Source: Bacteroidota bacterium (GTDB lineage: Bacteria; Bacteroidota; Bacteroidia; B-17B0; Aurantibacillaceae). From it: 64,000 nt of DNA. Shown piece after piece: positions 18,801 to 54,851 of this stretch; the first letter of the stretch is position 1; each line of letters opens with the position of its first letter. The position numbers and the translations under genes are program-made. Below the pieces are notes generated by a model, which did no database searches, was not told the DNA's origin, and saw only the letters and a list, made by a program, of their open reading frames with translations. Location: the NCBI GenBank assembly GCA_021156365.1, contig JAJNDK010000003.1, positions 372,001-436,000 on the forward strand, written 5' to 3'.

Positions 18801-21800
18801 TCATTTGTTCGAAATCGATATCCACTTCATTGGAAGCCGGCCATACTATGCCTCTGTCTCCCTCGCTGTCGGCGCTGTAATTTCCTTCCGGGGTTAATTT
18901 GAGTGGTACAATGTATTCATAATAGTTGCTGACGAAATCCGTACCGAAACGGACGAACATCTGCATCTCGTCATCCTGCAATGGATTGGTGCCTAATTTT
19001 TCAGCATGAACGAACATTTTCATGTGTTTGTATGAACGCACGTCATTGGTGATGTTTTTGTAAGCCGCTTTTGCATAACCGTCCTGCAATCCGCAGGTAC
19101 GCAATACCAGCGCCTGCTCATTCAGTAATACCAGGTTAGTGGTCTGTACATTTTGCTGCTGGTTCACTCCCGGAGGGATCACATAATTGATAGGAGTTTT
19201 GGTTCCGTTCTCCTGGATGTTCACTGCCGAAAGATCAAAGGTTGCACCATCTCCGGGACCTCCGATATAATCACCAGGCAATGCGCCCACCCCATCAAAC
19301 TGCCTCCAGTCGCTCCGCACCAGTTCCATACGAGCCATACGACAAACTACCGGTGCACTGAAACCTTTCAGGATCGTACGCATAAAACGGATAGAGTTGA
19401 ATCCTTCAATAGAGCCTATCTTCTGCTCGAAGCTGTTGATAGGAATTTTTATCTGGTACCACAATACGGATTTCGGATTGTTATTGGCATCGGTGAAAGA
19501 AGATTCGTAAACGTTTGTGATGTAATTGTTACCCACATTGCCCGGGCTCAGATCCTGCGGTGTAATTTTCAAACGGTATTGATAGTAGGCTTCTGTTTCG
19601 CTCAAAGTATTATCCCTGTTCACATCTTCCGAGTTGGGAGTAAGGGAACCTGTGGTTGGGTATCTGTCACCATTGAGCGGCTCGTACTGAGACTGGGTAG
19701 GAGAGTTGGCCTCCATGTTGTTGAACCATTTGTAGCGGTACAATGTATTGGCAGAGGAAAGAGCATCGAAATCATCACCCCTGTAGAAATGATAATTATC
19801 AGCAGAAGGATCGGCATTGGCTGCATCCAGTGCTCCACCACTTAAACCATTAAGGTAGCTGGAAAAAAAGCCACGCTCATCTGCATTCTTTAATCCATCA
19901 AAACCTACATCCTGGTTCTCACGTGTAGTTTCATCTATATCAAAAGCAGGTGTAATGATCGGTAAATTGGAAACATATCCCCAGTTGGTCTGATCCACTT
20001 TGTCAGGATCGTTCAATGCACCAGCTTTAGGAATACCATTTTCAAAGGACATTTTCCCGTCTTTCAGAATATCCTCCGACACGTTACCGATCTGTACGAG
20101 CATTTCTCCATTGGTTGGCGGCGCATATCCCGGGAAGGTCGCGGCATAATCCGCATTGAACGGATCCATCATCCAGAACTGGATAAACTCTACGTTGGCT
20201 GTCTGGAAATCCACGTTCTCCATACGGCGCATGATACCACCCCAGCGTGTTTCCGGCTCATTCAGGCGCACACCATTGCTAAGGTTTGAGTTGGCGAAAT
20301 CAACACCTCTTGAAAAAAAAGTAGGATTTACATCATAATTGTAAGGACCTCTTTCATTTGGATACAGCGCAAGATCGAGGACAGGAAGCAATACCGGCTG
20401 CCCGTTAGGCGGTTGTTTGTTTGGGAATATCTCCGTTTCGATGATAACCCGCATAAAGTTATTGGACTGGATATTTGCTGTAATGTTTGCAGGTTTCAAA
20501 GACCCCTCCATATAAAAAACCGATTGATCGACAGCATACCAGGCAAGTCTCGCCCTGTTGAAACCGGATTGATAACCAGGCTGTGTCGCTTCCGGAAATT
20601 CATCATCCAAACCCTGCGGAACGCTTGCAAGACTCCAGGCACTTGGGCTGCGGAGATCGATCTGGGAAATACTACCTTCAAAATCATCGAGGTAAGAGTT
20701 ACCCGCATTGCTTCCTGCGGTGTTGATAGCTTTGGAGTGGCCTGCAATAAGCTGTGCGAATTCACCCGATGACTGGATAGAAGATTTTTCCTTTGTGTTG
20801 ATCAGTGGTATCTTATCGATAAGCCGTGTCAGCCAGGGTGCATCTGCACGATGATTGAAATCAAATCCCCACATGATATTGGAAATAGGCTCGTCACCGA
20901 AATTCACTTTTTGTGTCAGAGGTCTTTCCGTAAGTCGGAGAAATGTACCTCCCACCGAAAAATCTTTATTCACTTTATAATCCAGGCGTGTCCCGATCAG
21001 ACTCTTCTGCTGGATGTTGAACATGGAATTACTTTCGGAGGAAACCTTGATCGGCTGCCCTGAATTCATAATACTTTCGTTGATGATCTTCACGCGCCCC
21101 AATGTATAGTCCACCGTGTAATCCACATTTTCCGTGAGCGGAACACCACCGGCAGTTACTTTCACGGATCCCTGCGGAACGTTCAATGCATTCAGTGAGA
21201 TCTCCGAACTGCTGGATGATTTATATTGTCCTTTTATTTTATATACATTTTTCTTGGTTTGCTGCTGTGCGATAACTTTGGTGGAATCGTACAGTTCCTG
21301 GAAAATATAGTCGACGGTAGTCGGGCTCAGACCAATGGTGTCTGCAAGATCACTTCCAAAAGGCTCAATGCGCGGGAAATACACACGCCCGTTGGCAGAA
21401 ATGATTGTAGTACCTTCGATAAAATCAAAATACCCATCGTTCATTTTATCGCCGTTCACGTTCACGATATCAAGGCCCATCACTTGTAAGAGCGGTGTAC
21501 TTGCTACCGGCGCCACATTGATATACGGAAGATCCACACCTTTTGTATTCCGGAAGATCTCGAATTTGAAATCCTGCGGATTGATCTGGTAGCCTCCGAT
21601 GGAATAAACGTTTTTCATCATCAGATCCCACATCGCAACACGGGTGTTCAACACCGTACTTTTTAATAATTTCAGGTACAAAGGTTTGTCGCCGGTAGGG
21701 AACTGATCGGAAAACTCACCCACCTGGTACGTTTGCCCGCCTGAGGTATACTGGAAAGCAACACAAAGTACCTCATCGTAATTCAGCGACTGATTCAGGG

Positions 21801-23271
21801 AAATATATCCAAGACGTTTGTTCCAGGTATACTCCGTCGGTTTTAATTTTCGTGCACGGTTCACCACATCAAAATCACGTCCCTGCTCCATGAACTGGTT
21901 ACCGGAGTTACAGGAGTTCGGATAAATGGACGTGTTTTTTAATTTACTGGTAACGGTAGAGAAGTCGCGGTCTCTAATAATACCATAGCCAGTATCTACT
22001 AATATGGAATACAAACTGTTTGCATTGTTACTTGGTAAAGGACTTGTGGTAAGATCCTGGATCCTGTAGGGACTACTAACACAACCCGGATTGGTAAGGT
22101 TGCCGACAATTTTGGAAGAGTCTTCACCTAAATCGGCAAAACCGGCAACGTTACGAACCTCATCCTGCTGGTTGCTCCGGTTGGTCACCCACACCTCAAC
22201 CCTTGTGATCACTACCGCGGAGCTGATCATTGGGATCGTTTTCATCGAGTTGTTGTAACTGTCGCGGAAGTACTGGGATAAAAAGTAGTGACGATTGGCT
22301 TCATAATTATCGGCCGCTATCGTATAATTAGTCGTTTGCGAACCGCCCTGCAGGGTTACCTCCGTTTTTTTACCGCGTTCCTGCGAAAGAACCGTAGTAG
22401 CGGTAAGCTTACCGAACTGCATTTTTGTTTTTACACCAAAAAGACTCTGGCTTCCTGTAATGAGCGAAGTCGTGAGTGGCAACGTAACGTTACCTGCTTC
22501 AATACTTTTCAGGATCTCATCTTCCAGACCATTGTATTCGAGCTTCATTTGATTTTCGAAATCGAAGGATGCTTCCGTATTATAGTTGGTTGTTAATTTC
22601 AATTTCTCGCCGATCTTACCTACGAGGTTCAACTGCACTTTCATGCCAAAGTCGAAGTTACTGATCTTACGTTGTTTTACAGGGATGGCGGGATTACCAT
22701 TTTTGTTGGTAACAACGCCGAAGGATAATTCGGCGGAGCCATTCGGACGTATGTCAACGGTGTTCCCTCCGAAGATACGGTCGAACAATTCTCCGCCCAC
22801 GTTCAGTTTCGGGATCAGCTGGTTCGGGTTGGCGGCTGCATTGGTGGCATCGTCCGCTTTGATCCTCGATTTGAAATAACCCTTTACCTGTTTTTTAAAT
22901 AAATAATCCTGGTATTCTTCTTCCGTCATATAGATCGGCGGACGGTAATCATTGTTCCCCATTTTTTGTTCGAAGAGGAATTCCTTTTTCAGCGGATCGT
23001 ATGTGGTTGTGTTTTTAACATTCGAAGGATTGTTTAGCTCCAGCGGATGTTGTTGTTGGTAAATGTATTCATCATAACCCGTCGGGTGGATCGGGTAGGG
23101 CAGATCTTCGTTGGTAACCGGTGTATCCGGAGCAGCGATGTGCGTTCCGTTGAAAGAAAGATCATGATATTTTGCAAGCGGTTTACGGCTATCGGCATGC
23201 GACTGTGTGATCACAGCCAACATGGATATGGACAATCCACCAACAAGCGTATATTTAACAAATGCATTCAA
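15874..23271 (-). CDS. sprA: T9SS outer-membrane translocon SprA (Sov family)
   Basis: 2465 residues, within the 2400-2500 typical of SprA/Sov. It begins with an export signal (MNAFVKYTLVGGLSISMLAV) and runs as almost continuous amphipathic beta-strands, ending in KPVVSTSFPTANTNAGFSLRFSLAQ-type barrel strands with the last strand at the C-terminus. Recognisable SprA segments include LTTNYNTEASFDFENQ, SYLDDFEGS and WINELRLTDF. SprA is the very large single-chain barrel through which T9SS cargo crosses the outer membrane, working with PorV and a plug protein, neither of which is encoded nearby. It starts 2 bases after ruvA and is the last gene of the maeB-ruvA-sprA operon. Confidence 0.97.
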   Translation of the reverse strand: MNAFVKYTLVGGLSISMLAVITQSHADSRKPLAKYHDLSFNGTHIAAPDTPVTNEDLPYPIHPTGYDEYIYQQQHPLELNNPSNVKNTTTYDPLKKEFLFEQKMGNNDYRPPIYMTEEEYQDYLFKKQVKGYFKSRIKADDATNAAANPNQLIPKLNVGGELFDRIFGGNTVDIRPNGSAELSFGVVTNKNGNPAIPVKQRKISNFDFGMKVQLNLVGKIGEKLKLTTNYNTEASFDFENQMKLEYNGLEDEILKSIEAGNVTLPLTTSLITGSQSLFGVKTKMQFGKLTATTVLSQERGKKTEVTLQGGSQTTNYTIAADNYEANRHYFLSQYFRDSYNNSMKTIPMISSAVVITRVEVWVTNRSNQQDEVRNVAGFADLGEDSSKIVGNLTNPGCVSSPYRIQDLTTSPLPSNNANSLYSILVDTGYGIIRDRDFSTVTSKLKNTSIYPNSCNSGNQFMEQGRDFDVVNRARKLKPTEYTWNKRLGYISLNQSLNYDEVLCVAFQYTSGGQTYQVGEFSDQFPTGDKPLYLKLLKSTVLNTRVAMWDLMMKNVYSIGGYQINPQDFKFEIFRNTKGVDLPYINVAPVASTPLLQVMGLDIVNVNGDKMNDGYFDFIEGTTIISANGRVYFPRIEPFGSDLADTIGLSPTTVDYIFQELYDSTKVIAQQQTKKNVYKIKGQYKSSSSSEISLNALNVPQGSVKVTAGGVPLTENVDYTVDYTLGRVKIINESIMNSGQPIKVSSESNSMFNIQQKSLIGTRLDYKVNKDFSVGGTFLRLTERPLTQKVNFGDEPISNIMWGFDFNHRADAPWLTRLIDKIPLINTKEKSSIQSSGEFAQLIAGHSKAINTAGSNAGNSYLDDFEGSISQIDLRSPSAWSLASVPQGLDDEFPEATQPGYQSGFNRARLAWYAVDQSVFYMEGSLKPANITANIQSNNFMRVIIETEIFPNKQPPNGQPVLLPVLDLALYPNERGPYNYDVNPTFFSRGVDFANSNLSNGVRLNEPETRWGGIMRRMENVDFQTANVEFIQFWMMDPFNADYAATFPGYAPPTNGEMLVQIGNVSEDILKDGKMSFENGIPKAGALNDPDKVDQTNWGYVSNLPIITPAFDIDETTRENQDVGFDGLKNADERGFFSSYLNGLSGGALDAANADPSADNYHFYRGDDFDALSSANTLYRYKWFNNMEANSPTQSQYEPLNGDRYPTTGSLTPNSEDVNRDNTLSETEAYYQYRLKITPQDLSPGNVGNNYITNVYESSFTDANNNPKSVLWYQIKIPINSFEQKIGSIEGFNSIRFMRTILKGFSAPVVCRMARMELVRSDWRQFDGVGALPGDYIGGPGDGATFDLSAVNIQENGTKTPINYVIPPGVNQQQNVQTTNLVLLNEQALVLRTCGLQDGYAKAAYKNITNDVRSYKHMKMFVHAEKLGTNPLQDDEMQMFVRFGTDFVSNYYEYIVPLKLTPEGNYSADSEGDRGIVWPASNEVDIDFEQMINLKFLRGAGSTETVQMGIDGGKTIRIVGNPTISELRTIMVGIRNPKDIGNEPKCVEVWINELRLTDFVQKGGWAATGRVTAKLADLGQLAFSTSYMTPFFGSIEKKISERSRETNFQYDASTTIQLGKFFPADWKINLPIYLNYGEIKITPQYDPSNPDVLMKDIKGLSDKDVTNYKDITDAELKEIRERALDYTERKGLNFSNVSKQRSPGKTKSHLWDIENFSVTYAFSEQEKRNITQELNLQKNYRAALTYGFTATPKNIKPFGKVKAKWLNNKWFALIKDINFTPAPSRVGFNTDIVRNYNEYKSRNISSSDANIPSQYNKTFIMNRTYDLKWDFTKALKFDFNASNDARVLEPIGEIDTKEEKEVIKNNILSGGINIGYRHAINLTYTIPINKIPIFDWVTATASYKSNYQFTRRPFASDSLGNTIMNGNTKSLNAQFNMVTLYNKIPYFKRVNTGAKKTPDKGKDPKDPKSATPAVKDSTKKNDFKIMEHIARLIMTLKQVQATYSENNGTNLPGYIDSTRILGMNTGNFNPGIPFVIGSQRNILANAQADSLLIRRDNLNSPFAQTISRQFNFTAKLEPFRDFRVDVTGSKSVGYNSSQYLGWNSAEGRYTSSTFTQTGNFSISTISIRSAFQKDDKTTYSNAAFDNFLSYRQEYAQQLATDNPFSSKAATADGYDGYSRNQQDVILKSFTAAYSGKGTGAKQTEFPKIPLPNWTLTYDGLSKLKSKFIKKNIKSITLRHSYKSTYNVGAFSNNQLFTPVNGQGFDEATFSPGRIDPANPKSNFVSKYLITTVTIQESFAPLFKVDVVLNEKKGKKTADGKEQKSKGAITASFEVRKDRTVSLNANIPQITETRGREFIAGAGYRYPKLKINRIKIRGKSLESDLNCKVDLSLRNNVTTQRRVIDGISVPSQGQNIITLKTSVDYALSQNINLRLYFDKIINKPVVSTSFPTANTNAGFSLRFSLAQ

Positions 23272-26543: not shown

Positions 26544-29500
26544 GTGAAAAAGATGCAGAGAATATATATTCTTTCTTTATTTTTTTTAATTGCGGCTTCT
26601 GCAATGGAAGCCCAATCCTGGCAATGGGCTAAGGAAGCAAATTCTGCTGCCGATGAGTTGGCATGGGATCTCAGCTGTGATACTTCATCAGGTGTTATTT
26701 ATGCGGGCGGATATTTCAAAGGTAATATCAGCGCGGCTTACGGAGCATCGTTCACTGTAACGGGTGGAGGAGCAGACGGTTTTGTGGCTAAATACGATCC
26801 GAATGGAAATGTACTTTGGGCCTTTAAGATAGGTGGAAGTGGGGAGGATGAGGTGAGGACTGTAGCTACGGACGTTTCAGGTAATGTGTATGCCTCCGGT
26901 TATTTTACCGGCACGGTGGATTTTGATCCGGGAGTGGCAAGTTTCAATTTGACTTCAACTGGTATGTCTGATGGTTTCCTTGCAAAATATACGACTTCCG
27001 GAACACTCATATGGGCTGTGAAATTCGGTAGTACTGCCGAAGATGAAGCCTGGAAAGTGACCTGCGATCCCGCCGGTAACGCATATGTCACAGGGCAATA
27101 TAATAACAGCGCAGTAACATTTCACTCAACAAGCGCAGCCACAGCTACCACTTTTTCTACAGCCGGCCAGATCGATATGTTTACCTGTAAATACAACCCG
27201 GGTGGTGTTGTACAATGGGCTATTTCAGGCGGAGGCAGCAAAGATGATATAGGGTATAAAGTAGTAGCGGACAACAGCAATGTTTATATCACCGGGATCT
27301 TCAGTAATAGCTTTGATCTATTGTCGACAAGCGGTTCTACAGTATCCTTGCTGAATTCTAACAGCGGTAATAAGTCCGATATTTTTGTGGCAGCTTATAG
27401 CCAGGCCGGCTCGTTCTTGTGGTCTACGAGTGCTGGGTCCAACGAAGATGATATCGGTATGGGCATTGCGCAGGATGCGAACAATCTTTATATTACGGGA
27501 AGCATTAAAGGCGTTGCCGATTTTCCTTATCCTGCCGCTGTATTCACCAAAGCCTGCCAGGGGGCTACCGATATTTTTCTTGCCTGTATGTCCAAATCAA
27601 ACGGAATTTTTCAATGGGTGTCTTCTGAAACCGGCTCAGGCGTGGGTGAAGAAGAAGCCAAAGCGATCCGCATGAATCATGATGGAACTCTACTGGTGAC
27701 GGGATATTTTAAAAACACACTGACGTATAGTCCTTTTGGGTTGTCCAATCTGAGTGCGAATGCCAAGGATGTATTCCTGTGTAACTTTGATGTCTCGGGA
27801 AATATCCTTTGGGCAAAAAGTGCCGGAGGTCCGGGCGATGATGCAGGATATGGATTGGCAAACAATAACCTGAACAATGCCTTTGTTGGTGGCGAACATA
27901 AGGATGCAGCGGTATTCGGTACATATACGCTTACGAATGCCGGGGCAAAAAATGTGTTTGTTGCCAAATACGGTTGTTCGCCTGTTACCGGCAATACGAT
28001 TTCTGCAGCGCAAACGATCTGTTCCGGCAACGCACCTTCCACACTGACAGGAACTGCACCATCCGGAGGATCACCTCCCTATTCATATCTATGGAAACAA
28101 AGCACCGACAATGTTACCTGGACAAATGCATCCGGGACCAATAACACGGTATCGTATTCACCTCCGCCTTTAACATCGAACATGTATTATTTGCGCACAG
28201 TAAGCTCGGGAGGTTATTGCACTGATTATTCGAACAGCGCCTCGATACTCATTACTGTTACTCCTCTCCCCACAAGCTCTTCTGCCGGCAGTGATCAAGC
28301 CGTCTGTGCTTCCTCTTCCATTCTTGCAGCAAACAATCCAATTATAGGAACAGGTACATGGTCTCTACTCTCAGGCTCCGGAAATATCAGCAATGCGAAC
28401 CAGCACAATTCATCGGTTACCGCTCTTGGAGTGGGGACTAACAGGTTTATCTGGAGAATTTCGAATGGGAGCTGCCCTTCGTCAAGAGACACTGTTAGTA
28501 TCATACGAAGCATAAACCCTTCTACTGCCAGTGCAGGCAGCAATCAAACTATCTGCAGTAATTCCGCTTTTCTGAATGCAATCAATCCCTCTGTCGGAAC
28601 AGGCTTATGGCAGGTATACAGTGGCACAGGTGTTTTCAATGATCCACTTTCAGATAATACAACTGTCAATGGTCTAAGCACAGGGACTAATTCTTTTGTG
28701 TGGACAGTCAGTAATGGAAGCTGTCCTTCTTCTTCTGATACGGTTCGCATTACGGTAGATGCTCTACCTACTACATCTGTTGCCGGAAGTGACCAGGCGA
28801 TCTGTTCTTCTGCGTCGGCACTCAATGGGAATATCCCTGCAGTGGGCAGCGGTACATGGTCGGTATTGTCGGGCTCCGGAAATATCAGCAATCCGAATAC
28901 ATTCAATACTACCGTTACTTCGTTGGGCACAGGCACCAACAGATTTATCTGGAGAATTTCGAATGGGAGCTGCCCTTCGTCAAGAGACACTGTTAGTATC
29001 ATACGAAGCATAAACCCATCTACCGCCAGTGCAGGGAACAATCAAACTATCTGCAGCAGCTCCGCATTTCTGAATGCAGTCAATCCCTCTGTCGGAACCG
29101 GCCTGTGGCAGGTGTTTACAGGTGGCGCAAATATCAGTAATCCTTTGTCGGATAACACAACCGTAACCGGACTTACAACGGGGAGTAATGCTTTTGTATG
29201 GACCGTCAGCAATGGAAGCTGTCCGCCATCTACGGATACAGTTATTGTAACGGTAGATGCATTTCCTTCTGCTTCCAACGCCGGAAGCGATCAGGCGATT
29301 TGTTCATCTTCTGCTTTGTTGGGTGCGAACACGCCTTCTACGGGAACAGGCATCTGGTCTGTGCTGGCAGGTTCGGGTAGCATCTTGTCTCCCGGTTCAG
29401 GTGTCACCTCTGTTAATACATTGAGCACAGGCACCAATAGTTTTATCTGGACCATTTCGAACGGGGTTTGTCCTTCCACGCGCGATACGGTATTGATCCA

Positions 29501-31277
29501 TGTAAGTGCAATGCCTACAGTTGCCAATGCAGGAACGGATCAGAGTGTATGTGAGCTCAGTGTTTATCTGTTAACAGCCAATCTACCGCTCGTAGGCACA
29601 GGCAGCTGGTCGGTACTGAATGGCGGAGCAACACTTTCTTTGCCTGCACAAAATATTTCTACAGCGACGGGTATGACGACCGGCGATAACATTTTTAAAT
29701 GGACGATCAGCAATGGCGTGTGCCCTTCTTCAGCAGACACCGTGATCATACATGTAGATGAGTTTCCTACTGTTTCTAATGCGGGCTCCGACCAGGGACT
29801 CTGTGGTCAGGCTACTTCCGTGCTCACAGCCAATACACCAGTAGTGGGAACAGGACAATGGTCTTCGTTATTGGGAACTGCGCTTATTATTGATCCTATA
29901 TTACCTGTTACCAACATATCAGGTATTAGTCCCGGTAATTCTATTTTCAGGTGGACCATTTCAAATGGTGTTTGTCCTTCTTCAAACGATACAGTGCTTA
30001 TTCATATGGACGCTCAACCCGATCCGGCGGTTGCCGGCCCTGATCAGGCGATTTGCTCTGCTGTTTCGTCTCTTTCCGCTGCTTCTGTTAGCACCGGTCT
30101 TGCAGTTTGGTCGGTTATAGGCGGATCAGGAATTCCTTTAAATCCTCTACAGGAAAATACGGCTATCATGAATTTAAGTGCAGGTGATAATATGTTTGTA
30201 TGGACAGTAAGCAATGGCTTGTGTCCGCTGCTTCGTGATACTGTGATCATTCACCGCGATGAAATGCCAACTGTTGCTAATGCCGGCATTGACCATGTGC
30301 TGTGTACAGACACGATCTTACTTTCGGGTAACACACCTCAAACGGGAACAGGCAATTGGAGCTTGCTCAACGGTAGTTGTAATTTTTCTGATGCTCAGTC
30401 CGGGAACTCTTCAGTGACGGGCTTTCCGTATGGCCAGGATGTTTTTGTATGGACGATCAGCAATGGTGTATGTCCACCGTCTGTTGATACAGTGAGCATT
30501 CAAGTAGATGCAAAACCCGATGCAGCAAATGCAGGAACAGACAAAACAGTTTGCGCTTCTTCCCTTGTACTTTCGGCTAACACTCCTGTTACAGGAGCAG
30601 GTACCTGGATCGTTTTGACAGGAAGCGCTACTACAGCGACACCTGCATTGGCTGCTGCAGTTGTAGATAACCTGGATATCGGACAGACCATCCTGCGCTG
30701 GAAAATAAGCAATGGCGTTTGTCCGGACACTTTCGATGATATAGTGATAATGCGTGATGCTATGCCGGATCCGGCTATTGCCGGTAGTGATGTAAGCAGC
30801 GATATTCCTGTTGTTCAGCTCAGTGCCAATGCTCCACTGACCGGCACAGGTACCTGGAGCATCGTAACGGGAACAGCGGTTTTTGAAGATGCAGCAGATG
30901 CAAACACACATATTACAGATCTCGGTCCCGGAAAAAATATCTTTAAGTGGAGTATACACAATGGCGTATGCCCTGCCAGCACAGATGAGGTGGAGATCAC
31001 ACTCAACCCCTTAAAGATCCCCAATGGATTTTCACCGAACGATGACGGGGTGAACGATTTTTTTGTTATTCCTTCACTCGAATATTATAAGAATACGCAC
31101 ATGAGTATTTTCAATCGTTGGGGAAGCACTGTGTATGAAAGCGAAGATTATAAGAACGATTGGGACGGTAAAAACAACAGCAGCCAATTGTTAAGTGATG
31201 ATACCTATTATTATTTGCTTGAAGTAAAACCGGGTGAGCATTACAATGGATTTATCATTTTAAAAACAGGTAAATGA
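26544..31277 (+). CDS. Giant T9SS type B surface protein with beta-propeller and 11 Ig-like repeats
   Basis: 1577 residues from GTG 26544; ATG 26553 in the same frame is equally possible. A signal peptide (ILSLFFLIAASAMEAQ) is followed by SBBP-type beta-propeller repeats to about residue 480 (DVSGNVYASGYFTGTVDFDPG), then a short Ig-like piece, 11 tandem repeats of about 83 residues (about 575-1490), and a T9SS type B / gliding-motility C-terminal domain (IPNGFSPNDDGVNDFF, IFNRWGSTVYES, YYYLLEVKPG). Such proteins are exported by T9SS and held at the surface with a PorP/SprF partner, which is the next gene and overlaps by 4 bases. I infer an adhesin or filament. It heads a five-gene operon. Confidence 0.9.
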   Translation: MKKMQRIYILSLFFLIAASAMEAQSWQWAKEANSAADELAWDLSCDTSSGVIYAGGYFKGNISAAYGASFTVTGGGADGFVAKYDPNGNVLWAFKIGGSGEDEVRTVATDVSGNVYASGYFTGTVDFDPGVASFNLTSTGMSDGFLAKYTTSGTLIWAVKFGSTAEDEAWKVTCDPAGNAYVTGQYNNSAVTFHSTSAATATTFSTAGQIDMFTCKYNPGGVVQWAISGGGSKDDIGYKVVADNSNVYITGIFSNSFDLLSTSGSTVSLLNSNSGNKSDIFVAAYSQAGSFLWSTSAGSNEDDIGMGIAQDANNLYITGSIKGVADFPYPAAVFTKACQGATDIFLACMSKSNGIFQWVSSETGSGVGEEEAKAIRMNHDGTLLVTGYFKNTLTYSPFGLSNLSANAKDVFLCNFDVSGNILWAKSAGGPGDDAGYGLANNNLNNAFVGGEHKDAAVFGTYTLTNAGAKNVFVAKYGCSPVTGNTISAAQTICSGNAPSTLTGTAPSGGSPPYSYLWKQSTDNVTWTNASGTNNTVSYSPPPLTSNMYYLRTVSSGGYCTDYSNSASILITVTPLPTSSSAGSDQAVCASSSILAANNPIIGTGTWSLLSGSGNISNANQHNSSVTALGVGTNRFIWRISNGSCPSSRDTVSIIRSINPSTASAGSNQTICSNSAFLNAINPSVGTGLWQVYSGTGVFNDPLSDNTTVNGLSTGTNSFVWTVSNGSCPSSSDTVRITVDALPTTSVAGSDQAICSSASALNGNIPAVGSGTWSVLSGSGNISNPNTFNTTVTSLGTGTNRFIWRISNGSCPSSRDTVSIIRSINPSTASAGNNQTICSSSAFLNAVNPSVGTGLWQVFTGGANISNPLSDNTTVTGLTTGSNAFVWTVSNGSCPPSTDTVIVTVDAFPSASNAGSDQAICSSSALLGANTPSTGTGIWSVLAGSGSILSPGSGVTSVNTLSTGTNSFIWTISNGVCPSTRDTVLIHVSAMPTVANAGTDQSVCELSVYLLTANLPLVGTGSWSVLNGGATLSLPAQNISTATGMTTGDNIFKWTISNGVCPSSADTVIIHVDEFPTVSNAGSDQGLCGQATSVLTANTPVVGTGQWSSLLGTALIIDPILPVTNISGISPGNSIFRWTISNGVCPSSNDTVLIHMDAQPDPAVAGPDQAICSAVSSLSAASVSTGLAVWSVIGGSGIPLNPLQENTAIMNLSAGDNMFVWTVSNGLCPLLRDTVIIHRDEMPTVANAGIDHVLCTDTILLSGNTPQTGTGNWSLLNGSCNFSDAQSGNSSVTGFPYGQDVFVWTISNGVCPPSVDTVSIQVDAKPDAANAGTDKTVCASSLVLSANTPVTGAGTWIVLTGSATTATPALAAAVVDNLDIGQTILRWKISNGVCPDTFDDIVIMRDAMPDPAIAGSDVSSDIPVVQLSANAPLTGTGTWSIVTGTAVFEDAADANTHITDLGPGKNIFKWSIHNGVCPASTDEVEITLNPLKIPNGFSPNDDGVNDFFVIPSLEYYKNTHMSIFNRWGSTVYESEDYKNDWDGKNNSSQLLSDDTYYYLLEVKPGEHYNGFIILKTGK
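28270..31010 (+). repeat. Eleven tandem Ig-like repeats inside the type B adhesin gene
   Basis: Units of about 83 codons follow AGSDQxIC...GTGxWSVLxGSG...GxNxFxWxISNGxCP. Ten units have two cysteines, likely a disulfide; the last unit has lost the first (AGSDVSSD). Units 1-2 and 3-4 form a duplicated pair offset by 498 bases with a 74-base identical stretch, showing recent expansion. Confidence 0.9.
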
Positions 31278-32158
31278 AAAAAGCAGTATGCATAATTTTT
31301 GTTTGTATCTGTAGTTTTGCAAAGGCACAACACAATAGTGCATACAGCCAGTATATGTTCAATATGCTGCTGGTTAATCCTGCATATGCCGGAAGCCAGG
31401 ATGCCCTTAATCTCACTGGACTTTATCGCGAGCAATGGGTCGGGATAGATGGTGCGCCAAGGACGCTGACACTTAGTGCACACACACCTTTTAAGAATAA
31501 AAAGCTGAATGCCGGAATTGTTTTTTCGAATGACAGGATTAGCATCTATGATCACAACAGGGTAAGCGCCATGTATGCATACCGGATAAAAGCAGGCAAA
31601 GGTTTTCTGTCTTTCGGTCTGCAGGCAGGAATTAATTCGTTCAGGCAGAACTGGCAGAATATAAATACCACCCAGGCCAATGATGTTAGTTTCCAGGTAG
31701 CACCGGTCCGGAATATATTGCCGGAAACAGGCTTTGGGATCTATTATCATTCACAGCGTTTTTTTATGGGAGCAGCAGTTCCTTCGGTATTGATAGACGG
31801 GCAATCCACCATATACTCGCCTGCTAATTTATATACAGGAGCAGTCTTGAATGCCGGAACCTCTTTTAAAATAAGACCTGCTGTCCTGTTGAAGTATGTG
31901 AAAGGCTCACCGCTTTCGTTGGATGTAAATACCATTTTTTACTGGAGGGATGTGCTTGGCCTTGGTCTTGGGTATCGTATGAACGATGCAGCTATGGCAC
32001 TTGTGGATCTGAAACTGAATGATCAGCTACGTATAGGTTATTGCTACGATTATACGTTGTCAAAGCTGCGTAATTATTCAAACGGCAGCCATGAGTTTAT
32101 GATCCGCTACCTGTTCTTTTATAAACTGCAACCCGCGAAAGGTATGCGCTATTTTTAG
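31274..32158 (+). CDS. PorP/SprF-family T9SS outer-membrane protein
   Basis: 294 residues with a signal peptide (MKKAVCIIFVCICSFAKAQ). The family hallmark follows at once: YSQYMFNMLLVNPAYAGS, then LYREQWVGIDGAP. The rest is a beta-barrel of 12-14 strands (FLSFGLQAGINSF, GLGLGYRMND) ending with aromatic strands. PorP/SprF proteins bind type B substrates at the outer membrane and are needed for their secretion and attachment, as SprF is for SprB. The 4-base overlap with the type B adhesin makes that adhesin the likely client. Confidence 0.93.
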   Translation: MKKAVCIIFVCICSFAKAQHNSAYSQYMFNMLLVNPAYAGSQDALNLTGLYREQWVGIDGAPRTLTLSAHTPFKNKKLNAGIVFSNDRISIYDHNRVSAMYAYRIKAGKGFLSFGLQAGINSFRQNWQNINTTQANDVSFQVAPVRNILPETGFGIYYHSQRFFMGAAVPSVLIDGQSTIYSPANLYTGAVLNAGTSFKIRPAVLLKYVKGSPLSLDVNTIFYWRDVLGLGLGYRMNDAAMALVDLKLNDQLRIGYCYDYTLSKLRNYSNGSHEFMIRYLFFYKLQPAKGMRYF

Positions 32159-32159
32159 T

Positions 32160-33620
32160 ATGAAAAAAGCATCTACATATCCAATACTTTCCCTGCTGGT
32201 AATGAGCTTTTCCCTGCGGTCCCAGACTGTTGACTCACTTGCTTTTTCGGATGAAGAGGATACCTGCCGTATAAAAATTGTAAAACTGAAACTGAATTCG
32301 CGGGAGGATGATTTTGCGCCGGTCGTTTGTAACAATAAAATGCTCTTTACATCATCAAGGCCGGCTTCATTCGGAGTGGTTTACCAGGAACCGGGAAGTG
32401 AACATACTACCGGTATTTATTATGCTGAAAAAAAAGATTCCATACATTTTTCAGAACCAAAACTATGGCCGGGCACGGTTAATACGCATTACAATGAAGG
32501 TAATGCTGCGTTGAACCGGGAAGAGAACCTGCTCATATATACGGGTAACGAAAGGAATGCGTCGAAAAAAAGCGAAAGGACAAAACTATGCTTGTATGCC
32601 TGTGAGAAGATCGGTGGAAAATGGCAGGAGCCGCAGCCATTATGGTTTTGCGGAGATGGATATTCATATTGTCATCCGGCTCTGCAGAAAGACGGGAAGA
32701 CTTTATTCTTTGCCTCTGACCGACCGGGTTCAGCAGGTGGTATGGATATTTATTGCAGCATTTTTACCAACGGAAAATGGAATGAACCACAAAATGTCGG
32801 AAGCAAAGTAAATACATCCTTCAACGAGATCTTCCCGGCAATAAGTGAAAACAATACGCTCTATTTTTCCAGCAATCGCCCGGGTGGTATCGGTGGACTG
32901 GATATTTATGCACTTAACCTGAACGATCCTATTGAAAGCGAGCTCGTGGTATTGGAAAGCCCCGTCAACTCTACATTTGATGACTTCGGGATCTTTCCGG
33001 ATTCTACCGGGGAAAGCGGATACTTTTCTTCCTCGAGGGATCTGAAAAACAAAGATGAGATCTATTATTACAGAGTAACAAGCCCTGATTTCAAAGATGC
33101 GACAACACCTGTTGTAAGAAACACATTCTGCTACACTTTTTATGAAGAAACCAGTCCGGACGAGTTTAATACGGACAGTCTCGTATACGAATGGGACCTC
33201 GGTGACGGCACTGTTGTGAGAGGTGCAAAAGCAAAGCACTGTTATACAAAATGTGGCACTTATACTATACAATTGAATATTGTGGAAAAGAACACCGGCG
33301 CTTTGTTCTATAACCAGGTGAGCTACGATCATATCATCCCGGAACCTGAACAATTGAAAATAGAGTACAGTGATGAGCTTTTAAGCAATCAGAAACTGAA
33401 ATTTTGTTGCGAAGGATCTGCTATTCCCGGTTATTCCATTCAACAGACCTTCTGGATATTCGGAGATCAGACATATAGCTACGGAAACAAGGTGAAGCAT
33501 TTGTATAAAACAAAAGGCACCTATACGGTCACACTTGGTGTAATAGCAAAAAATAATAACACGGGGCAAGTAGAAAAATTCAAAACTGAAAAAACAATCA
33601 CTGTAAGAGATAATTTTTAA
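32160..33620 (+). CDS. PD40-repeat secreted protein with two C-terminal PKD-like domains
   Basis: 486 residues with a signal peptide (YPILSLLVMSFSLRSQ). WD40-like PD40 blades cover about 40-310, including FASDRPGSAGGMDIY (184-198) and YFSSNRPGGIGGLDIY (235-250). Two PKD-like Ig domains follow (about 323-390 with YEWDLGDG, and about 397-486 with FWIFGDQ and YKTKGTYTVTLGV). PorP/SprF loci usually carry a PD40 protein ending in an OmpA peptidoglycan-binding domain (PorE-like). Here that domain is absent and PKD domains take its place, so it may bind surface protein or glycan rather than murein. It starts 1 base after the PorP/SprF stop and belongs to the same operon. Confidence 0.85.
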   Translation: MKKASTYPILSLLVMSFSLRSQTVDSLAFSDEEDTCRIKIVKLKLNSREDDFAPVVCNNKMLFTSSRPASFGVVYQEPGSEHTTGIYYAEKKDSIHFSEPKLWPGTVNTHYNEGNAALNREENLLIYTGNERNASKKSERTKLCLYACEKIGGKWQEPQPLWFCGDGYSYCHPALQKDGKTLFFASDRPGSAGGMDIYCSIFTNGKWNEPQNVGSKVNTSFNEIFPAISENNTLYFSSNRPGGIGGLDIYALNLNDPIESELVVLESPVNSTFDDFGIFPDSTGESGYFSSSRDLKNKDEIYYYRVTSPDFKDATTPVVRNTFCYTFYEETSPDEFNTDSLVYEWDLGDGTVVRGAKAKHCYTKCGTYTIQLNIVEKNTGALFYNQVSYDHIIPEPEQLKIEYSDELLSNQKLKFCCEGSAIPGYSIQQTFWIFGDQTYSYGNKVKHLYKTKGTYTVTLGVIAKNNNTGQVEKFKTEKTITVRDNF

Positions 33621-33628
33621 ACACCATT

Positions 33629-34609
33629 ATGATACAAAAACCATACTTTCTTAAACGCTTTGTTCCCGGACTTATTGTCATCATTGCGACTTCATCATTG
33701 TTTGCGCAGCCGGTTCCTTCCATAGATGAAAAGATCCCTTATCTCTGCACCTTCGGAAAAGATGCTCAAAAGCAATGGGGCGATGACGATTTTGTGCAGA
33801 CTTTTTTCTTTACAATACCCGAAAATTACAAAAGCCCTGTTTACTTCCGGGTTTTTGATCCGGATGTGGCAGGTGCAATAGATGAGAACCATGCCGCATT
33901 CAACAGTAAAACCAGGTTTACCATATTTGGCGGGAAAGGAGCTCATTCGGAACCTGCAGCAAAAAAACAGGATCCTGTAGGGAATTTTAAGAGTGGGGTA
34001 CAGCTGGCAAGCAAAACATTTGGTAACGAAAAGGAATATGACAATGGCTGGTATACCTTCGGTCCTTTTAATCCGAAGGAAGGAGAGCTGCAGTCCGAAT
34101 TTGGGGGATATATATTTAAAATTACGGCAGAAGGTATCGAAGGCGATGACGGCAACCTGTACAAATATTTTATGTCGGCAGATGAAAATAATAATAAGCA
34201 GGTGGAAGGAGGCAATGCTTTTGCTTACGAATATTCCTTCCGCCTGTCAGATGCAAAAGGATCCGTCTCTCATCTTTATCCTTTTGTGGGTAAGAATGTA
34301 GTGGCCATTAAAACCAATGTTTTTGATTTTGATAATGACGGGATCATACGTATTGTTTCCGTGGCAAAAAAGGGAGATGTGTTGAAAACAACGGCTGACG
34401 GAATGTGGCTGGAAGATATTCATAAGATCACGGAAGCTGAGATCAGTACTTCGCTGGATGTGCAGTTTATAAAACCGAAGGAGCTCAGGAACAATAATAT
34501 TGTTGTATATTTTACCAATCAGTACGGAGAGCTCATGCCGTTTTTTACAACTCCGATAGGCGGTATACCACGTTATAAGTATAAGATCGGTGTAAAAGAA
34601 GAAAAATAA
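33629..34609 (+). CDS. Secreted protein of unknown function in the adhesin operon
   Basis: 326 residues. An N-terminal signal (GLIVIIATSSLFAQ, after a basic MIQKPYFLKR) precedes a soluble beta-rich protein. Visible pieces are FFFTIPENYKSPVYFRVFDPDVAGAID, a TRFTIFGGKGAHS segment and a second half with DFDNDGIIRIVSVAKKG, Asp-rich and possibly Ca-binding. I do not recognise a domain. The first half resembles a jelly-roll/C2-like sandwich in strand pattern only. It lies 8 bases after the PD40-PKD gene and 4 bases before the sensor phosphatase, so it is an integral member of the operon. It may be a ligand or adaptor for the sensor, which is inference. Confidence 0.8.
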   Translation: MIQKPYFLKRFVPGLIVIIATSSLFAQPVPSIDEKIPYLCTFGKDAQKQWGDDDFVQTFFFTIPENYKSPVYFRVFDPDVAGAIDENHAAFNSKTRFTIFGGKGAHSEPAAKKQDPVGNFKSGVQLASKTFGNEKEYDNGWYTFGPFNPKEGELQSEFGGYIFKITAEGIEGDDGNLYKYFMSADENNNKQVEGGNAFAYEYSFRLSDAKGSVSHLYPFVGKNVVAIKTNVFDFDNDGIIRIVSVAKKGDVLKTTADGMWLEDIHKITEAEISTSLDVQFIKPKELRNNNIVVYFTNQYGELMPFFTTPIGGIPRYKYKIGVKEEK

Positions 34610-34613
34610 TTTT

Positions 34614-37600
34614 ATGAAAACTCCCTTTTTTTGTTTCCTTTTCCTGTTTGTCTGTTTTTTGCCTGCTACTTCGCAAACGTATGAATTCCGTCATTATACC
34701 AGGGATCAGGGGTTGACCAATTCTTATATTTATGCAATCGATCAGTCGAAAAATGGTTTTCTTAACCTTTCAACGGGAGATGGTTTTTATTCTTTTGACG
34801 GGCAGAATTTTAATCCGCCAAAAGGAATAAATGTACTCCCCGAAAATTTCGTAACCACTCACTTTACCGATTCGAGAGGAATTACCTGGCTGGGTTATTT
34901 CCAGGAGGGTATTTCCTGCCTTTCCAATTCGAAACATCATAAAATAAATTACCAGGCGCTTAAAGGATCCCGGGTCACCCAGTTTATCGAGTGTGCTGGA
35001 AAAAGACTGCTGATCGCTACGCTGGGCAGTGGAATATTCAGCATGGATTCGGCTTTCCATATCACTCCCTTCAACAAGACTCCCGCACAAAGTGTCAATA
35101 CCATTGCACTGAATAAGGATGAGGTGTTGGCAGGTACCAACGAAGGTTTGTTCATATGCACCCCAAAAAGCTGTGAGCCTTCAGGGATCACGGAACTGAC
35201 AGATAAAAAAATAAAGAAAATAATCCCTGCTTATTTTATCTCAGAGGCATTCTGGGTAGCTACAGAAGGAGACGGGTTGTATTGTATACGAAGGAAGGGC
35301 AATAGTTTTATCCTTCTTCGCAAGATCAATACTGAATTGGGATCCGGCGAAAAAAAGATCTCCGATATATATTACGATGCGGATCATCATCTCTGGGTTT
35401 CACTGTTTGGAGAGGGTGTAAGAAGACTGAGTTTTTTAAACGCAAATCCTTCTGCCATTACCGAGATCCTGATCATTGATGAGTCCAGTGGTCTTCCGAA
35501 TAAAGATGTACAGACCATTTTCCAGGATTTTGAAGGCAATATGTGGTTTGGAACATTCGGTGGCGGACTTATAGAAAAACCCGTTGAGCGGTTTTCGTTT
35601 TATAACAATAAGGATACAGAAAAGAAAGAACCCGTTCTTTCCGTTCTTATAGACAGAGAGCAAAATCTGTGGGCCGGCACGGATAAAGGACTTTCCGGGA
35701 ACGCTTTTTCCAGGGACAAAGAGACCCTGATTTTTGATCCGGATGAATTCAGAGAAGGCCAGGTGAATGCCATGATGCAGGATGTGGGTGGTACCATATG
35801 GATAGGGACAGGTCAGAGTGGGATCTATACCTATGATCCTGGAAAAGGGAGGCTGAAGAATTTTTCGAAAGAAAACAGGCTGCCGGTATCTTCTGTGAAT
35901 TGCATCCTGCAAACCAAAAGCGGAAATATTGCCATAGGTACACAGGAAGGCGCCTGCGTATATGACCCGGTTTCTAAAAAAGTGAAGTGTATAACAACCC
36001 TCGAAGGTTTGCTTCATAATGATGTCATCAGCCTGTTCGAAGATAGCAGGCAGCGTCTCTGGATCTGCTCGCATCAGGCACCTCCTTACTATTTGCACGA
36101 CAGTGAGTTTACTGTTTTCAAAGATATTCCCGGACTTAAATCCTACAACATAAACGGAGTGACAGAAGATGAAGCCGGAAACATATGGATCGCTTCCGAA
36201 GGCGACGGGATTTTTGTATACAATGGGAACACGTTCAAAAATTATACGGAAAAGAACGGTTTGCTTTCCGATTATTGCTATGCAGTGGTGGTAGATAAAA
36301 ACGGTTCGGTATGGATCACGCATAAAAACGGCCTGAGCGAAAAGAAAAAAACATATGCCGGTTTTCGCACCTACACCAAAGCGGATGGATTAAAGTTTAC
36401 GGAAAATAACCTGAATGCTTTTTCAAAAGATCCGGACGGAAATATCTGGTTCGGAACGACAGATGGAATTGTACGGTACAATCCCGAAACCGGTGGAAGC
36501 ATTGTGGCCGAGCCCCGGCTGAATATTTCCGGGGTTTACCTGAATAATTCATTTCACAAAGCCGGATCCGTTATTGTAAAGCGTTTCGATAACTACGATA
36601 CCCGGATCGAATTTATTGCGGTGTCGTTGACCGATCCGGCTAAAGTACTGTACAAATACAGGCTCCTGGGTGTTGACAGTGTGTGGCGTACCACTGCGAA
36701 TCGATTTGTGGAGTATCCCCGGCTTTCAGATGGAACTTATATATTCCAGGTGATGGCCAGGAATAGCGGCGGGCTGTGGACAAGTACCCCGGCGGAAATG
36801 AAATTCGAGATTAGCCTGCCATTTTGGAAGCGGATCTGGTTTTACATTGCATTGGTCCTTCTTGTTATTGCCATTGCTTCGGTCATCACCTATCTGCGGA
36901 CAAAAAACCTGCGCCGTGCCAAATTATTACTGGAAGTGAAAGTAAAACAAAAAACATATCTGCTCCAGCGGGAAAAAGACAATGTGGAACAAATAAAAGG
37001 CGAGCTCGAAATAAAAAATAAAGACATAACGGATAGTATCAATTATGCCAAGCGAATACAGGAGGCCCTCTTGCCGAGCAAGCATTATATTTTCAAAAAA
37101 CTGTCGCAGACTTTTATTTATTTCCGCCCCCGCGATATTGTAAGCGGTGATTTTTATTGGTTTACGGAGACACCTGACAGCTATATTATAGCGGCGGTAG
37201 ATTGTACCGGGCATGGTGTGCCAGGAGCTTTCATGTCGCTCATTGGTTCTACGCTGCTTAATGAGATCATTAATACCAATGGGATTACTTCACCTGCGCG
37301 TATACTCACCGAGCTGAATGCAAAAATAGTAGAAACGCTGAAACAGGAAAGATCCGGTTTTTATTCCTACGACGGAATGGATATGGCGCTTTGTACGATC
37401 AATAAACAAAAGACCAAATGTCTGTTTGCATCTGCTTACCGCCCTCTTTATTTTATTCGAAATGGTGATCTGAGGGAAATAAAAGGCAATAGTTACTCTA
37501 TCGGCGGAAAATCCATCCTTGGAGAGAAAGTGTTTAATGAACATGAACTTGAGCTGGAAAAAAACGATATGCTGTATATTTTTTCCGATGGATACGGAGA

Positions 37601-37778
37601 TCAGTTCAGCGAAGTAAATCACAAAAAATTTACTACAAAGCGCCTGAAAACACTGCTTACCCTGATCTCGGGGTACGATGTAAACCTGCAGCGTGAAAAA
37701 GTAAAGGAGAATTTTGAGTACTGGAAAGGAAATGAAGAACAGATCGACGATATACTCGTCATCGGCATAAAAATATAA
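34614..37778 (+). CDS. Propeller / Y_Y_Y membrane sensor with SpoIIE-type PP2C phosphatase
   Basis: 1054 residues. The order is: signal peptide (MKTPFFCFLFLFVCFLPATS); two seven-bladed propellers of the two-component-regulator type (NMWFGTFGGGLIEKP, GTIWIGTGQSGIYTYDP, NIWFGTTDGIVRYNP); a Y_Y_Y domain near 640-735; a membrane helix at about 742-761; a coiled coil to about 815; and a SpoIIE/PP2C domain at 833-1054. Metal-binding aspartates are present in VSGDFYW (D846), DCTGHGVPGAF (D863), SDGYGD (D992) and QIDDILVIG (D1046), so it should be active. Such phosphatases dephosphorylate STAS anti-anti-sigma factors; a lone STAS gene lies at 58935. It is last in the adhesin operon. Confidence 0.92.
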   Translation: MKTPFFCFLFLFVCFLPATSQTYEFRHYTRDQGLTNSYIYAIDQSKNGFLNLSTGDGFYSFDGQNFNPPKGINVLPENFVTTHFTDSRGITWLGYFQEGISCLSNSKHHKINYQALKGSRVTQFIECAGKRLLIATLGSGIFSMDSAFHITPFNKTPAQSVNTIALNKDEVLAGTNEGLFICTPKSCEPSGITELTDKKIKKIIPAYFISEAFWVATEGDGLYCIRRKGNSFILLRKINTELGSGEKKISDIYYDADHHLWVSLFGEGVRRLSFLNANPSAITEILIIDESSGLPNKDVQTIFQDFEGNMWFGTFGGGLIEKPVERFSFYNNKDTEKKEPVLSVLIDREQNLWAGTDKGLSGNAFSRDKETLIFDPDEFREGQVNAMMQDVGGTIWIGTGQSGIYTYDPGKGRLKNFSKENRLPVSSVNCILQTKSGNIAIGTQEGACVYDPVSKKVKCITTLEGLLHNDVISLFEDSRQRLWICSHQAPPYYLHDSEFTVFKDIPGLKSYNINGVTEDEAGNIWIASEGDGIFVYNGNTFKNYTEKNGLLSDYCYAVVVDKNGSVWITHKNGLSEKKKTYAGFRTYTKADGLKFTENNLNAFSKDPDGNIWFGTTDGIVRYNPETGGSIVAEPRLNISGVYLNNSFHKAGSVIVKRFDNYDTRIEFIAVSLTDPAKVLYKYRLLGVDSVWRTTANRFVEYPRLSDGTYIFQVMARNSGGLWTSTPAEMKFEISLPFWKRIWFYIALVLLVIAIASVITYLRTKNLRRAKLLLEVKVKQKTYLLQREKDNVEQIKGELEIKNKDITDSINYAKRIQEALLPSKHYIFKKLSQTFIYFRPRDIVSGDFYWFTETPDSYIIAAVDCTGHGVPGAFMSLIGSTLLNEIINTNGITSPARILTELNAKIVETLKQERSGFYSYDGMDMALCTINKQKTKCLFASAYRPLYFIRNGDLREIKGNSYSIGGKSILGEKVFNEHELELEKNDMLYIFSDGYGDQFSEVNHKKFTTKRLKTLLTLISGYDVNLQREKVKENFEYWKGNEEQIDDILVIGIKI

Positions 37779-54762: not shown

Positions 54763-54851
54763 GAAATTTGTCTTGATTTGTAAATGTACTAAAATTACCA
54801 AAATCAGATTTGGGACATGCTCCTGCACTGCTTCGGAATGAGTCTGACAAT

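What the first reader, a model, noticed from the sequence alone, without database searches (positions are those of the whole stretch)
26544..37778. Five-gene T9SS surface module coupled to a sensor PP2C phosphatase
A type B adhesin, PorP/SprF, a PD40-PKD protein, an unknown secreted protein and a propeller-Y_Y_Y-TM-PP2C sensor are packed with gaps of -4, 1, 8 and 4 bases. Adhesin plus PorP/SprF pairs are known; a dedicated SpoIIE-type phosphatase in the same transcription unit suggests that surface attachment status feeds a partner-switch inside the cell.
Basis: partly seen in the sequence, partly recalled or inferred. Interest (0 to 1): 0.75.

Follow-up and report, generated by a model that had tools for sequence, protein, structure and literature searches.

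The report
Surface-adhesin operon with built-in phosphatase sensor
In many Bacteroidota a surface-adhesin gene set is packed together with an undescribed secreted protein and a membrane sensor whose inner end is a phosphatase, and in some relatives the sensor's probable kinase and target protein follow it directly, which points to a signalling route from the cell surface to the cell interior.

Summary
In detail: five genes at the stated coordinates, gaps -4, 1, 8 and 4 bases. The neighbourhood is conserved: 46 of 79 readable loci among the 80 best hits have adhesin, PorP, PD40, unknown gene and sensor in order, and 16 of 53 loci from an even sample of 395 class genomes have the triad before the unknown gene. 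The firmest pair is unknown gene plus sensor: 101 of 112 distinct loci with a readable downstream gene. PorP comes and goes around this pair (at least 10 changes).

The phosphatase resembles SiaA (14 of 14 sensors scanned). In 11 of 89 loci a SiaC gene lies within two genes downstream, 10 on the same strand, with a SiaB-like gene between in several. All 49 class genomes with the unknown gene also have SiaC, against 163 of 346 without it. The window's genome has no GGDEF protein.

Best reading: an outside-in SiaABC-type phospho-switch, the secreted protein being the sensor's periplasmic partner. That it reads adhesin or PorP status is inferred. No description was found in the papers searched.

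The parts
26544..31277 (+). Large secreted adhesin-like protein, 1577 aa: signal peptide (read from the sequence), PKD-like repeats, C-terminal type B T9SS sorting domain (CHU_C, residues 1490-1572, about 31011-31259)
   Evidence: CHU_C 90.8 bits; TIGR04131 62.4 bits
31274..32158 (+). PorP/SprF-family outer-membrane barrel, the expected anchor of the type B protein
   Evidence: 232.5 bits; TIGR03519 244.9 bits
32160..33620 (+). PorE-like PD40-PKD secreted protein without OmpA match
   Evidence: PorE 181 bits over residues 38-305, far below the whole-protein cut-off of 600; 49 module homologues scanned: PKD in 49, PD40 in 39, OmpA in 14
33629..34609 (+). Conserved secreted protein of no Pfam or NCBIfam family, modelled as two all-beta domains that I read as tandem jelly rolls (about residues 25-198 and 199-300); here called UNK
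   Evidence: no family; 75 sequences, 57% mean column identity; pLDDT 87.8
34614..37778 (+). Membrane sensor, 1054 aa: Reg_prop propeller, Y_Y_Y domain (residues 673-733, about 36630-36812), hydrophobic stretch and linker (read from the sequence), SpoIIE/PP2C phosphatase domain (residues 854-1053, about 37173-37772) closest to SiaA
   Evidence: NF038263 SiaA 172 bits over residues 773-1053; solved relatives 4a2l for the propeller, 6k4e for the phosphatase; D846, D863, D992, D1045, D1046 invariant in 14 sequences

Best explanation
A single transcription unit for surface display plus outside-in signalling. The type B adhesin is exported by the T9SS and held on the surface by its PorP/SprF partner, with the PorE-like PD40-PKD protein on the periplasmic side (inferred from the known PorE-PorP-type B complex). 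UNK, a secreted two-domain jelly-roll protein, is the dedicated periplasmic partner of the propeller/Y_Y_Y sensor and probably the adaptor between the PD40 protein and the sensor. Change in the outer complex or in UNK alters the sensor, which switches its cytoplasmic SiaA-like PP2C domain. The phosphatase removes phosphate from SiaC at the conserved Ser/Thr; a SiaB-like (DUF6272) kinase puts it back. Dephosphorylated SiaC then acts on an unknown partner that is not a GGDEF diguanylate cyclase in this genome. Shown here: gene order and its conservation, domain content, conserved acidic residues of the phosphatase, linkage to SiaB/SiaC in relatives, co-occurrence with SiaC. Inferred: operon transcription, UNK-sensor contact, SiaC as substrate, nature of the signal, output.
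For: UNK is followed by the propeller sensor in 101 of 112 distinct loci with a readable neighbour (94 with PP2C; 11 of 123 set aside as cut or at a contig end). No locus lacks both PD40 and sensor: all 11 UNK loci without sensor keep PD40, as do 8 of 8 in the class sample, an overlapping set. The output can be another signalling module: kinase-type HATPase_c in the four kinase loci scanned of five (L109, L110, L116, L120; HisKA in three of them, above cut-off in L110 only; L112 known only by absence of my PP2C profile) and a hybrid kinase-AraC protein in Flexithrix; the five propellers nest among module propellers. The phosphatase part matches SiaA in 14 of 14; 6k4e is the best solved relative for that part. 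SiaC lies within two genes of the sensor in 11 of 89 loci, 10 on the same strand with gaps of at most 44 bases to the preceding gene; of ten downstream genes scanned Pfam finds SiaC in six and DUF6272 in four; at least 7 changes of this state on the UNK tree. The phosphorylated Thr of P. aeruginosa SiaC (peptide LLYLNTSSIK, passages of PMC7647112) is Ser or Thr in the 10 sensor-linked SiaC aligned of 11, and in one of two SiaC of this genome. 49 of 49 UNK genomes have SiaC against 163 of 346 others.
Against: In this genome SiaB and SiaC are not in the operon; they lie together on another contig. The genome has 48 SpoIIE matches and 2 SiaC, so the phosphatase could have another target. 78 of 89 PP2C loci show no SiaC in the next two genes. 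SiaC is also in 163 of 346 genomes without UNK, and in all 6 genomes examined whose module sensor lacks PP2C, so co-occurrence is not specific and is not corrected for kinship. 24 of 53 class-sample loci lack PD40, PorP and adhesin just upstream, one of them at a contig start, so T9SS status cannot be the only signal. Module sensors are not a clade of their own: propeller-PP2C paralogues without UNK fall among them (at least 5 changes, one row being half of a split module sensor). No contact between UNK and any partner was tested. SiaA hits are far below the equivalog cut-off (172 of 700 bits).
Confidence: 0.5

Rival explanations
1. UNK plus sensor form an ordinary nutrient or glycan sensor. 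UNK (jelly-roll, like many carbohydrate-binding modules) or the propeller binds a soluble ligand; the T9SS genes are regulated neighbours, not signal givers.
For: Solved relatives of the propeller part are named two-component sensor kinases (that they are Bacteroides glycan sensors is recalled). UNK is modelled as two all-beta domains with jelly-roll-like matches. UNK-sensor pairs without the triad are common (30 of 94 PP2C loci had none of PD40, PorP, CTD beside UNK; some of these are at contig ends).
Against: The triad recurs with the pair in 46 of 79 best-hit loci, and UNK loci without sensor keep the PD40 gene (11 of 11). Fold matches are weak (best Z 8.9, rmsd 2.7 over 93 residues) and give no ligand.
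Confidence: 0.28
2. The phosphatase feeds an RsbU/RsbV/RsbW-type switch with a STAS antagonist and an anti-sigma factor, one form of the partner switch the first reader suggested.
For: The genome has 3 STAS matches, one of them in this window at 58935-59279, and an RsbW-like HATPase_c_2 protein.
Against: STAS and HATPase_c_2 genes were not sought systematically at module loci; none turned up among the neighbours scanned with Pfam there, whereas SiaC is linked in 11 of 89 loci. The RsbW-like gene lies one gene away from a different SpoIIE protein (L195). The PP2C part scores best with SiaA among NCBIfam models.
Confidence: 0.1
3. Conserved order reflects shared descent and co-expressed clustering of surface genes, with no direct signalling link between them.
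For: Most loci are related by descent; PorP genes are abundant (24 in this genome).
Against: UNK and sensor mostly stay together while the PorP position (at least 10 changes), the output state including loss of the sensor (11) and the SiaC neighbour (7) change on the UNK tree.
Confidence: 0.12

Closest known systems
SiaABC(D) threonine-phosphorylation switch of Pseudomonas aeruginosa
   Same: SiaA-like PP2C, DUF6272 protein and SiaC with the conserved Ser/Thr, in tandem in several relatives; control of biofilm and aggregation is the known role (abstract and passages of PMC7647112)
   Different: Sensor part is a propeller/Y_Y_Y domain; no GGDEF protein in this genome; coupled to T9SS surface genes and to UNK; in the window's genome SiaB and SiaC are unlinked to the module
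Type B CTD protein - PorP/SprF - PorE anchoring complexes of the T9SS
   Same: Type B CTD protein, PorP-like barrel and PorE-like PD40 protein encoded together; such a complex is described in PMC9143113 (passages), which also states that six F. johnsoniae porP-like genes lie next to porE-like genes
   Different: The PD40 protein has PKD domains and, in the window, no OmpA match; UNK and a phosphatase sensor are added
Hybrid two-component sensors (HTCS) with Reg_prop and Y_Y_Y domains
   Same: Same extracytoplasmic architecture; solved relatives 4a2l, 3v9f
   Different: Output here is PP2C, not kinase-receiver-AraC; of the module loci scanned only the Flexithrix one carries such a hybrid, and its propeller groups with non-module paralogues

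Membership tests
SiaABC-type partner switch | PP2C phosphatase of the SiaA subfamily | tested here: inconclusive
   NF038263 matches 14 of 14 module sensors scanned, window 172 bits over residues 773-1053 against a whole-protein cut-off of 700; acidic residues invariant in 14
SiaABC-type partner switch | SiaC target with phosphorylatable Ser/Thr | tested here: met
   Two SiaC in the genome, one with the NTSS motif, one with Ile at the site; Ser/Thr in the 10 sensor-linked SiaC of relatives that were aligned. Phosphorylation itself not tested
SiaABC-type partner switch | SiaB kinase (DUF6272) encoded with SiaA and SiaC | tested here: not met
   Not in the window operon; a DUF6272 gene lies beside SiaC on another contig. 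DUF6272 beside sensor and SiaC in relatives L228, L105, L049, L039
SiaABCD | SiaD diguanylate cyclase (GGDEF) as output | tested here: not met
   0 GGDEF matches in the genome (98.7% complete), while 8 of 14 control genomes match
Type B CTD - PorP - PorE anchoring complex | Type B sorting domain and PorP/SprF partner, adjacent | tested here: met
Type B CTD - PorP - PorE anchoring complex | PorE: PD40 lipoprotein with OmpA-like domain (domain make-up of PorE partly recalled) | tested here: not met
   PD40 part matches PorE, but no OmpA match and a signal peptide ending before Gln without lipobox (my reading of the sequence); OmpA in 14 of 49 module homologues
RsbU/RsbV/RsbW sigma switch | Linked STAS antagonist and HATPase_c_2 anti-sigma factor | tested here: not met
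   Neither is among the window genes scanned near the module; the STAS gene at 58935-59279 is 21 kb away beside a dehydrogenase
HTCS | HisKA, HATPase, receiver and AraC domains after Y_Y_Y | tested here: not met
   Window sensor has SpoIIE instead

The most novel reading that the evidence does not exclude
A widespread, so far undescribed trans-envelope pathway of Bacteroidota: a T9SS-anchored adhesin complex reports its state through a new family of secreted tandem jelly-roll adaptors to a propeller PP2C sensor, which sets a SiaC phospho-switch in cells without GGDEF proteins; many SpoIIE sensors of one genome (48 matches here) would converge on very few SiaC proteins as a hub.
Probability: 0.3. 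Interest if true: 0.82.

Novelty: new variant of a known kind. Interest (0 to 1): 0.66.

Why it matters
How Bacteroidota learn the state of their T9SS-exported surface layer, and what the many SpoIIE phosphatases of these genomes act on, appear to be open (as far as my searches and recall go). This module gives a concrete, testable chain for both: a secreted protein family, a sensor, and a kinase-target pair that are neighbours in some relatives. It also predicts a SiaC output other than a GGDEF diguanylate cyclase.

Tried and rejected
Sigma-factor switch: considered because of SpoIIE and STAS genes; set behind SiaABC because the linked genes found are SiaC and DUF6272. PorZ: the propeller scores 83 bits with NF052228, below its cut-off of 260, and the protein ends in a PP2C domain with no T9SS sorting domain found, so it is not PorZ. 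UNK as a solved fold family: a profile search of PDB sequences found none; Foldseek and VIA-align gave only weak matches (extracellular domains of SIDT1/2, DeCLIC channel N-terminal domains, a subtilisin jelly roll among them; best Z 8.9 over 93 residues), so no function is drawn from them. SiaC presence as a test between PP2C and kinase outputs failed: 50 of 50 module genomes given have it, including all 6 with non-PP2C sensors. A module-sensor clade was expected and not found: paralogues without UNK fall among module sensors. UNK in other classes first looked fused to PD40 with my profile; Pfam on one (L178) shows a PKD array instead. The first genome-contig scan, with a single sequence, found nothing; the alignment-based one found 486 loci, of which only the best 80 were returned. 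Promoter and terminator scans gave chance-level results. First gene calls missed UNK in L157 and L228; a later caller that seeds on profile hits mended this. In counts, sensors split over two neighbouring frames (L105, L151, L215, L223 among them) were counted as one sensor; their pieces were not joined. Literature searches covered an open-access library only, and searches listed only part of their hits (20 of 315, 20 of 23, 10 of 8,463).
Full report
Observation. They encode a 1577-aa protein with a type B T9SS sorting domain and PKD-like repeats, a PorP/SprF barrel, a PD40-PKD protein whose closest curated relatives are CHU_0125 and PorE (PD40 part only), a 326-aa secreted protein with no Pfam or NCBIfam match, and a 1054-aa Reg_prop / Y_Y_Y / SpoIIE protein. 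Promoter- and terminator-like sites are at chance level, and the only TTTG-N(17-22)-TAnnTTTG site in the window is outside the module (that motif is recalled). Upstream lies a 366-base gap to a divergent gene that reads as malic enzyme (recalled from its sequence, no family search), then ruvA and a 2465-aa SprA homologue, so a T9SS translocon gene is in the same window.

Spread of the unknown protein (UNK). 22 of 60 relatives including the window's genome carry it, and 49 of 395 genomes drawn evenly from the class. In a phylum sample 12 of 395 carry it; 10 of these 12, from other classes, have a divergent copy inside a much longer reading frame. In the stretches fetched for these ten, nine long proteins from seven genomes show it again with my profile near their N-terminus, one more (L186) more weakly, and two (L187, L188) not, so those two rest alone. 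One of the nine, scanned with Pfam (in L178), continues with 15 PKD stretches. Among the neighbours scanned are sensor kinases, adenylate/guanylate cyclases, FecR proteins and receiver-SpoIIE proteins, besides ordinary genes. An alignment-based scan of GTDB contigs found 486 loci; the best 80 were returned. The window's UNK and 74 homologues align with 57% mean column identity and 39 invariant columns. Most have a Gln soon after a small residue near the end of the signal peptide (116 of 121 by a simple motif), which fits the Bacteroidota signal-peptidase I pattern (PMC5837995, abstract and outline). The structure model is confident (pLDDT 87.8, pTM 0.84); I read it as two tandem beta jelly rolls, with only weak matches to solved structures.

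Neighbourhood. In 79 readable loci of the best 80, a sensor follows UNK in 73 (57 with PP2C, 8 cut by the contig end or by masked bases, 8 without my PP2C profile, two of those being split frames), and 46 have adhesin, PorP, PD40, UNK and sensor (any output) in order. These 80 are the closest relatives, so I repeated the count on the even class sample: of 53 loci other than the window, 39 have the PP2C sensor downstream, 3 a cut or masked sensor, 1 a sensor without PP2C, 8 none, 2 end there; upstream, 16 have adhesin-PorP-PD40, 13 PD40 alone and 24 none of these. Pooled and made distinct (144 loci to 125; two UNK fragments under 250 aa then dropped, leaving 123), UNK is followed by a PP2C sensor in 94, another sensor in 7, none in 11, cut in 10, end in 1. 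All 11 without sensor keep the PD40 gene. The PorP position, the output state and the SiaC neighbour change at least 10, 11 and 7 times on the UNK tree (quick method, 39 of 121 inner branches weak).

Output swap. Five loci (L109, L110, L112, L116 labelled Cytophagales, L120 labelled only Bacteroidetes) and Flexithrix (L123) have a sensor without my PP2C profile. Pfam finds kinase-type HATPase_c in the four of the five scanned (L109, L110, L116, L120; HisKA in the first three, above cut-off in L110 only; L112 not scanned) and a hybrid kinase with receiver and AraC-type domain in Flexithrix. The propellers of the five nest among module propellers, whereas the Flexithrix one groups with non-module paralogues. 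In L231 a propeller protein with no output domain found sits beside a LytS-type kinase and a LytTR regulator. The constant element is therefore UNK with a propeller sensor, not the phosphatase itself. Against a strict one-to-one story, module sensors are not a clade: propeller-PP2C paralogues without UNK fall among them (at least 5 changes, one row being half of a split module sensor, half of the PP2C module sensors used).

What the phosphatase probably acts on. Its PP2C part and linker match SiaA in 14 of 14 module sensors scanned, and 6k4e is the best solved relative of that part (that this entry is SiaA is recalled). Reading gene starts suggested SiaB and SiaC next to the L228 sensor. I then searched all held neighbourhoods with the genome's own two SiaC and one DUF6272 protein and the L228 pair. 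SiaC lies within two genes downstream of the sensor in 11 of 89 loci with two visible genes: L035, L039, L042, L043, L049, L100, L105, L156, L203, L228 on the same strand and L096 on the other. L042 and L043 are near-identical, and four more copies of the same contigs (L097, L118, L199, L209) were removed before the count. Of ten such genes scanned, Pfam gives SiaC for six and DUF6272 for four; the SiaC of L042, L043, L096, L100 and L105 rest on phmmer alone. The site phosphorylated in P. aeruginosa SiaC (peptide LLYLNTSSIK, passages of PMC7647112) is Ser or Thr in the 10 linked SiaC aligned (L043 left out), and in one of the two SiaC of the window's genome, the other having Ile. In the window's genome a SiaB-like and a SiaC gene are neighbours on another contig, beside a TPR-OmpA protein. 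SiaC is in 49 of 49 UNK-bearing class genomes and 163 of 346 others (Fisher p about 5e-15, not corrected for kinship). With a mean of 5.3 SiaC per module genome (genomes of 50 of the 80 loci; mean) and, as an assumption, about 3000 genes per genome, chance would put SiaC within two genes of a given gene in well under 1% of loci.

Limits. The genome holds 48 SpoIIE matches, 2 SiaC, 2 DUF6272, 3 STAS and no GGDEF. I did not measure how often SpoIIE genes outside the module sit beside SiaC in other genomes; in the window's genome the nearest SpoIIE on the SiaC contigs is about 95 kb off (coordinates). Eight stretches around other large SpoIIE genes of this genome were examined: none shows UNK, and the one PorP among them (L242) is on the opposite strand. 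The SiaC reading is thus supported by linkage in relatives and by subfamily, not by anything else inside this operon.

Mechanism. The triad resembles the PorE-PorP-type B complex, which is postulated to tie non-mobile type B proteins to the cell wall (passages of PMC9143113). Here the PD40 protein has PKD domains in 49 of 49 homologues scanned and OmpA in only 14, and UNK with a sensor is added. The simplest chain is adhesin, PorP, PD40-PKD protein, UNK, propeller sensor, SiaA-like phosphatase, SiaC. Each contact is inferred. The alternative that UNK and sensor detect a soluble ligand and only regulate the surface genes is open, because many pairs stand without the triad.

Comparison and novelty. 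It works like SiaABC at the cytoplasmic end and like a type B anchoring complex at the outer end, but fails membership features of each (no linked SiaB, no GGDEF; no OmpA match, no lipobox). I searched an open-access library for SprF/SpoIIE/Y_Y_Y, type IX secretion with SpoIIE, partner switching with SpoIIE and Bacteroidetes, DUF1987/DUF6272, propeller with SpoIIE, and PorP with serine phosphatase RsbU, and for Sia proteins with Bacteroidetes; none of the listed titles and abstract openings describes this module. I rate it a new variant of a known kind, with an undescribed conserved protein family at its centre.

Noticed in passing
Whole genome (G000): 48 SpoIIE matches but only 2 SiaC, 2 DUF6272, 3 STAS and no GGDEF: many phosphatases, few known targets.
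   Followed up: partly
window 58935-59279 and 59280-60245: A STAS-domain gene directly followed (gap 0) by a D-2-hydroxyacid dehydrogenase gene.
   Followed up: no
window 15874-23271 (-): SprA/Sov homologue (SprA_N 594 bits) next to ruvA and about 3.3 kb from the module.
   Followed up: no
L178-L186 (other classes): UNK-like domain near the N-terminus of long proteins (15 PKD stretches in the one scanned), with sensor kinases, cyclases, FecR or receiver-SpoIIE genes nearby in several loci.
   Followed up: partly
L104, L135: A 604-605 aa gene, PD40 protein and UNK in a row with no sensor, in Flavobacteriales-labelled contigs; the first gene is UvrC by Pfam in L104, not scanned in L135.
   Followed up: no
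L240:6245-10829 (window's genome, another contig): Another propeller-PP2C sensor whose start overlaps the end of a 448-aa gene with a signal-peptide-like start (only a weak CarboxypepD_reg match): possibly a second sensor with its own secreted partner.
   Followed up: no
window 51205-54828 (-): 1207-aa protein with a caspase-like peptidase C14 domain and sub-threshold propeller matches.
   Followed up: no
window 43075-51129 (+): 2684-aa protein whose only Pfam match at E 1e-6 is a Por_Secre_tail T9SS sorting domain.
   Followed up: no
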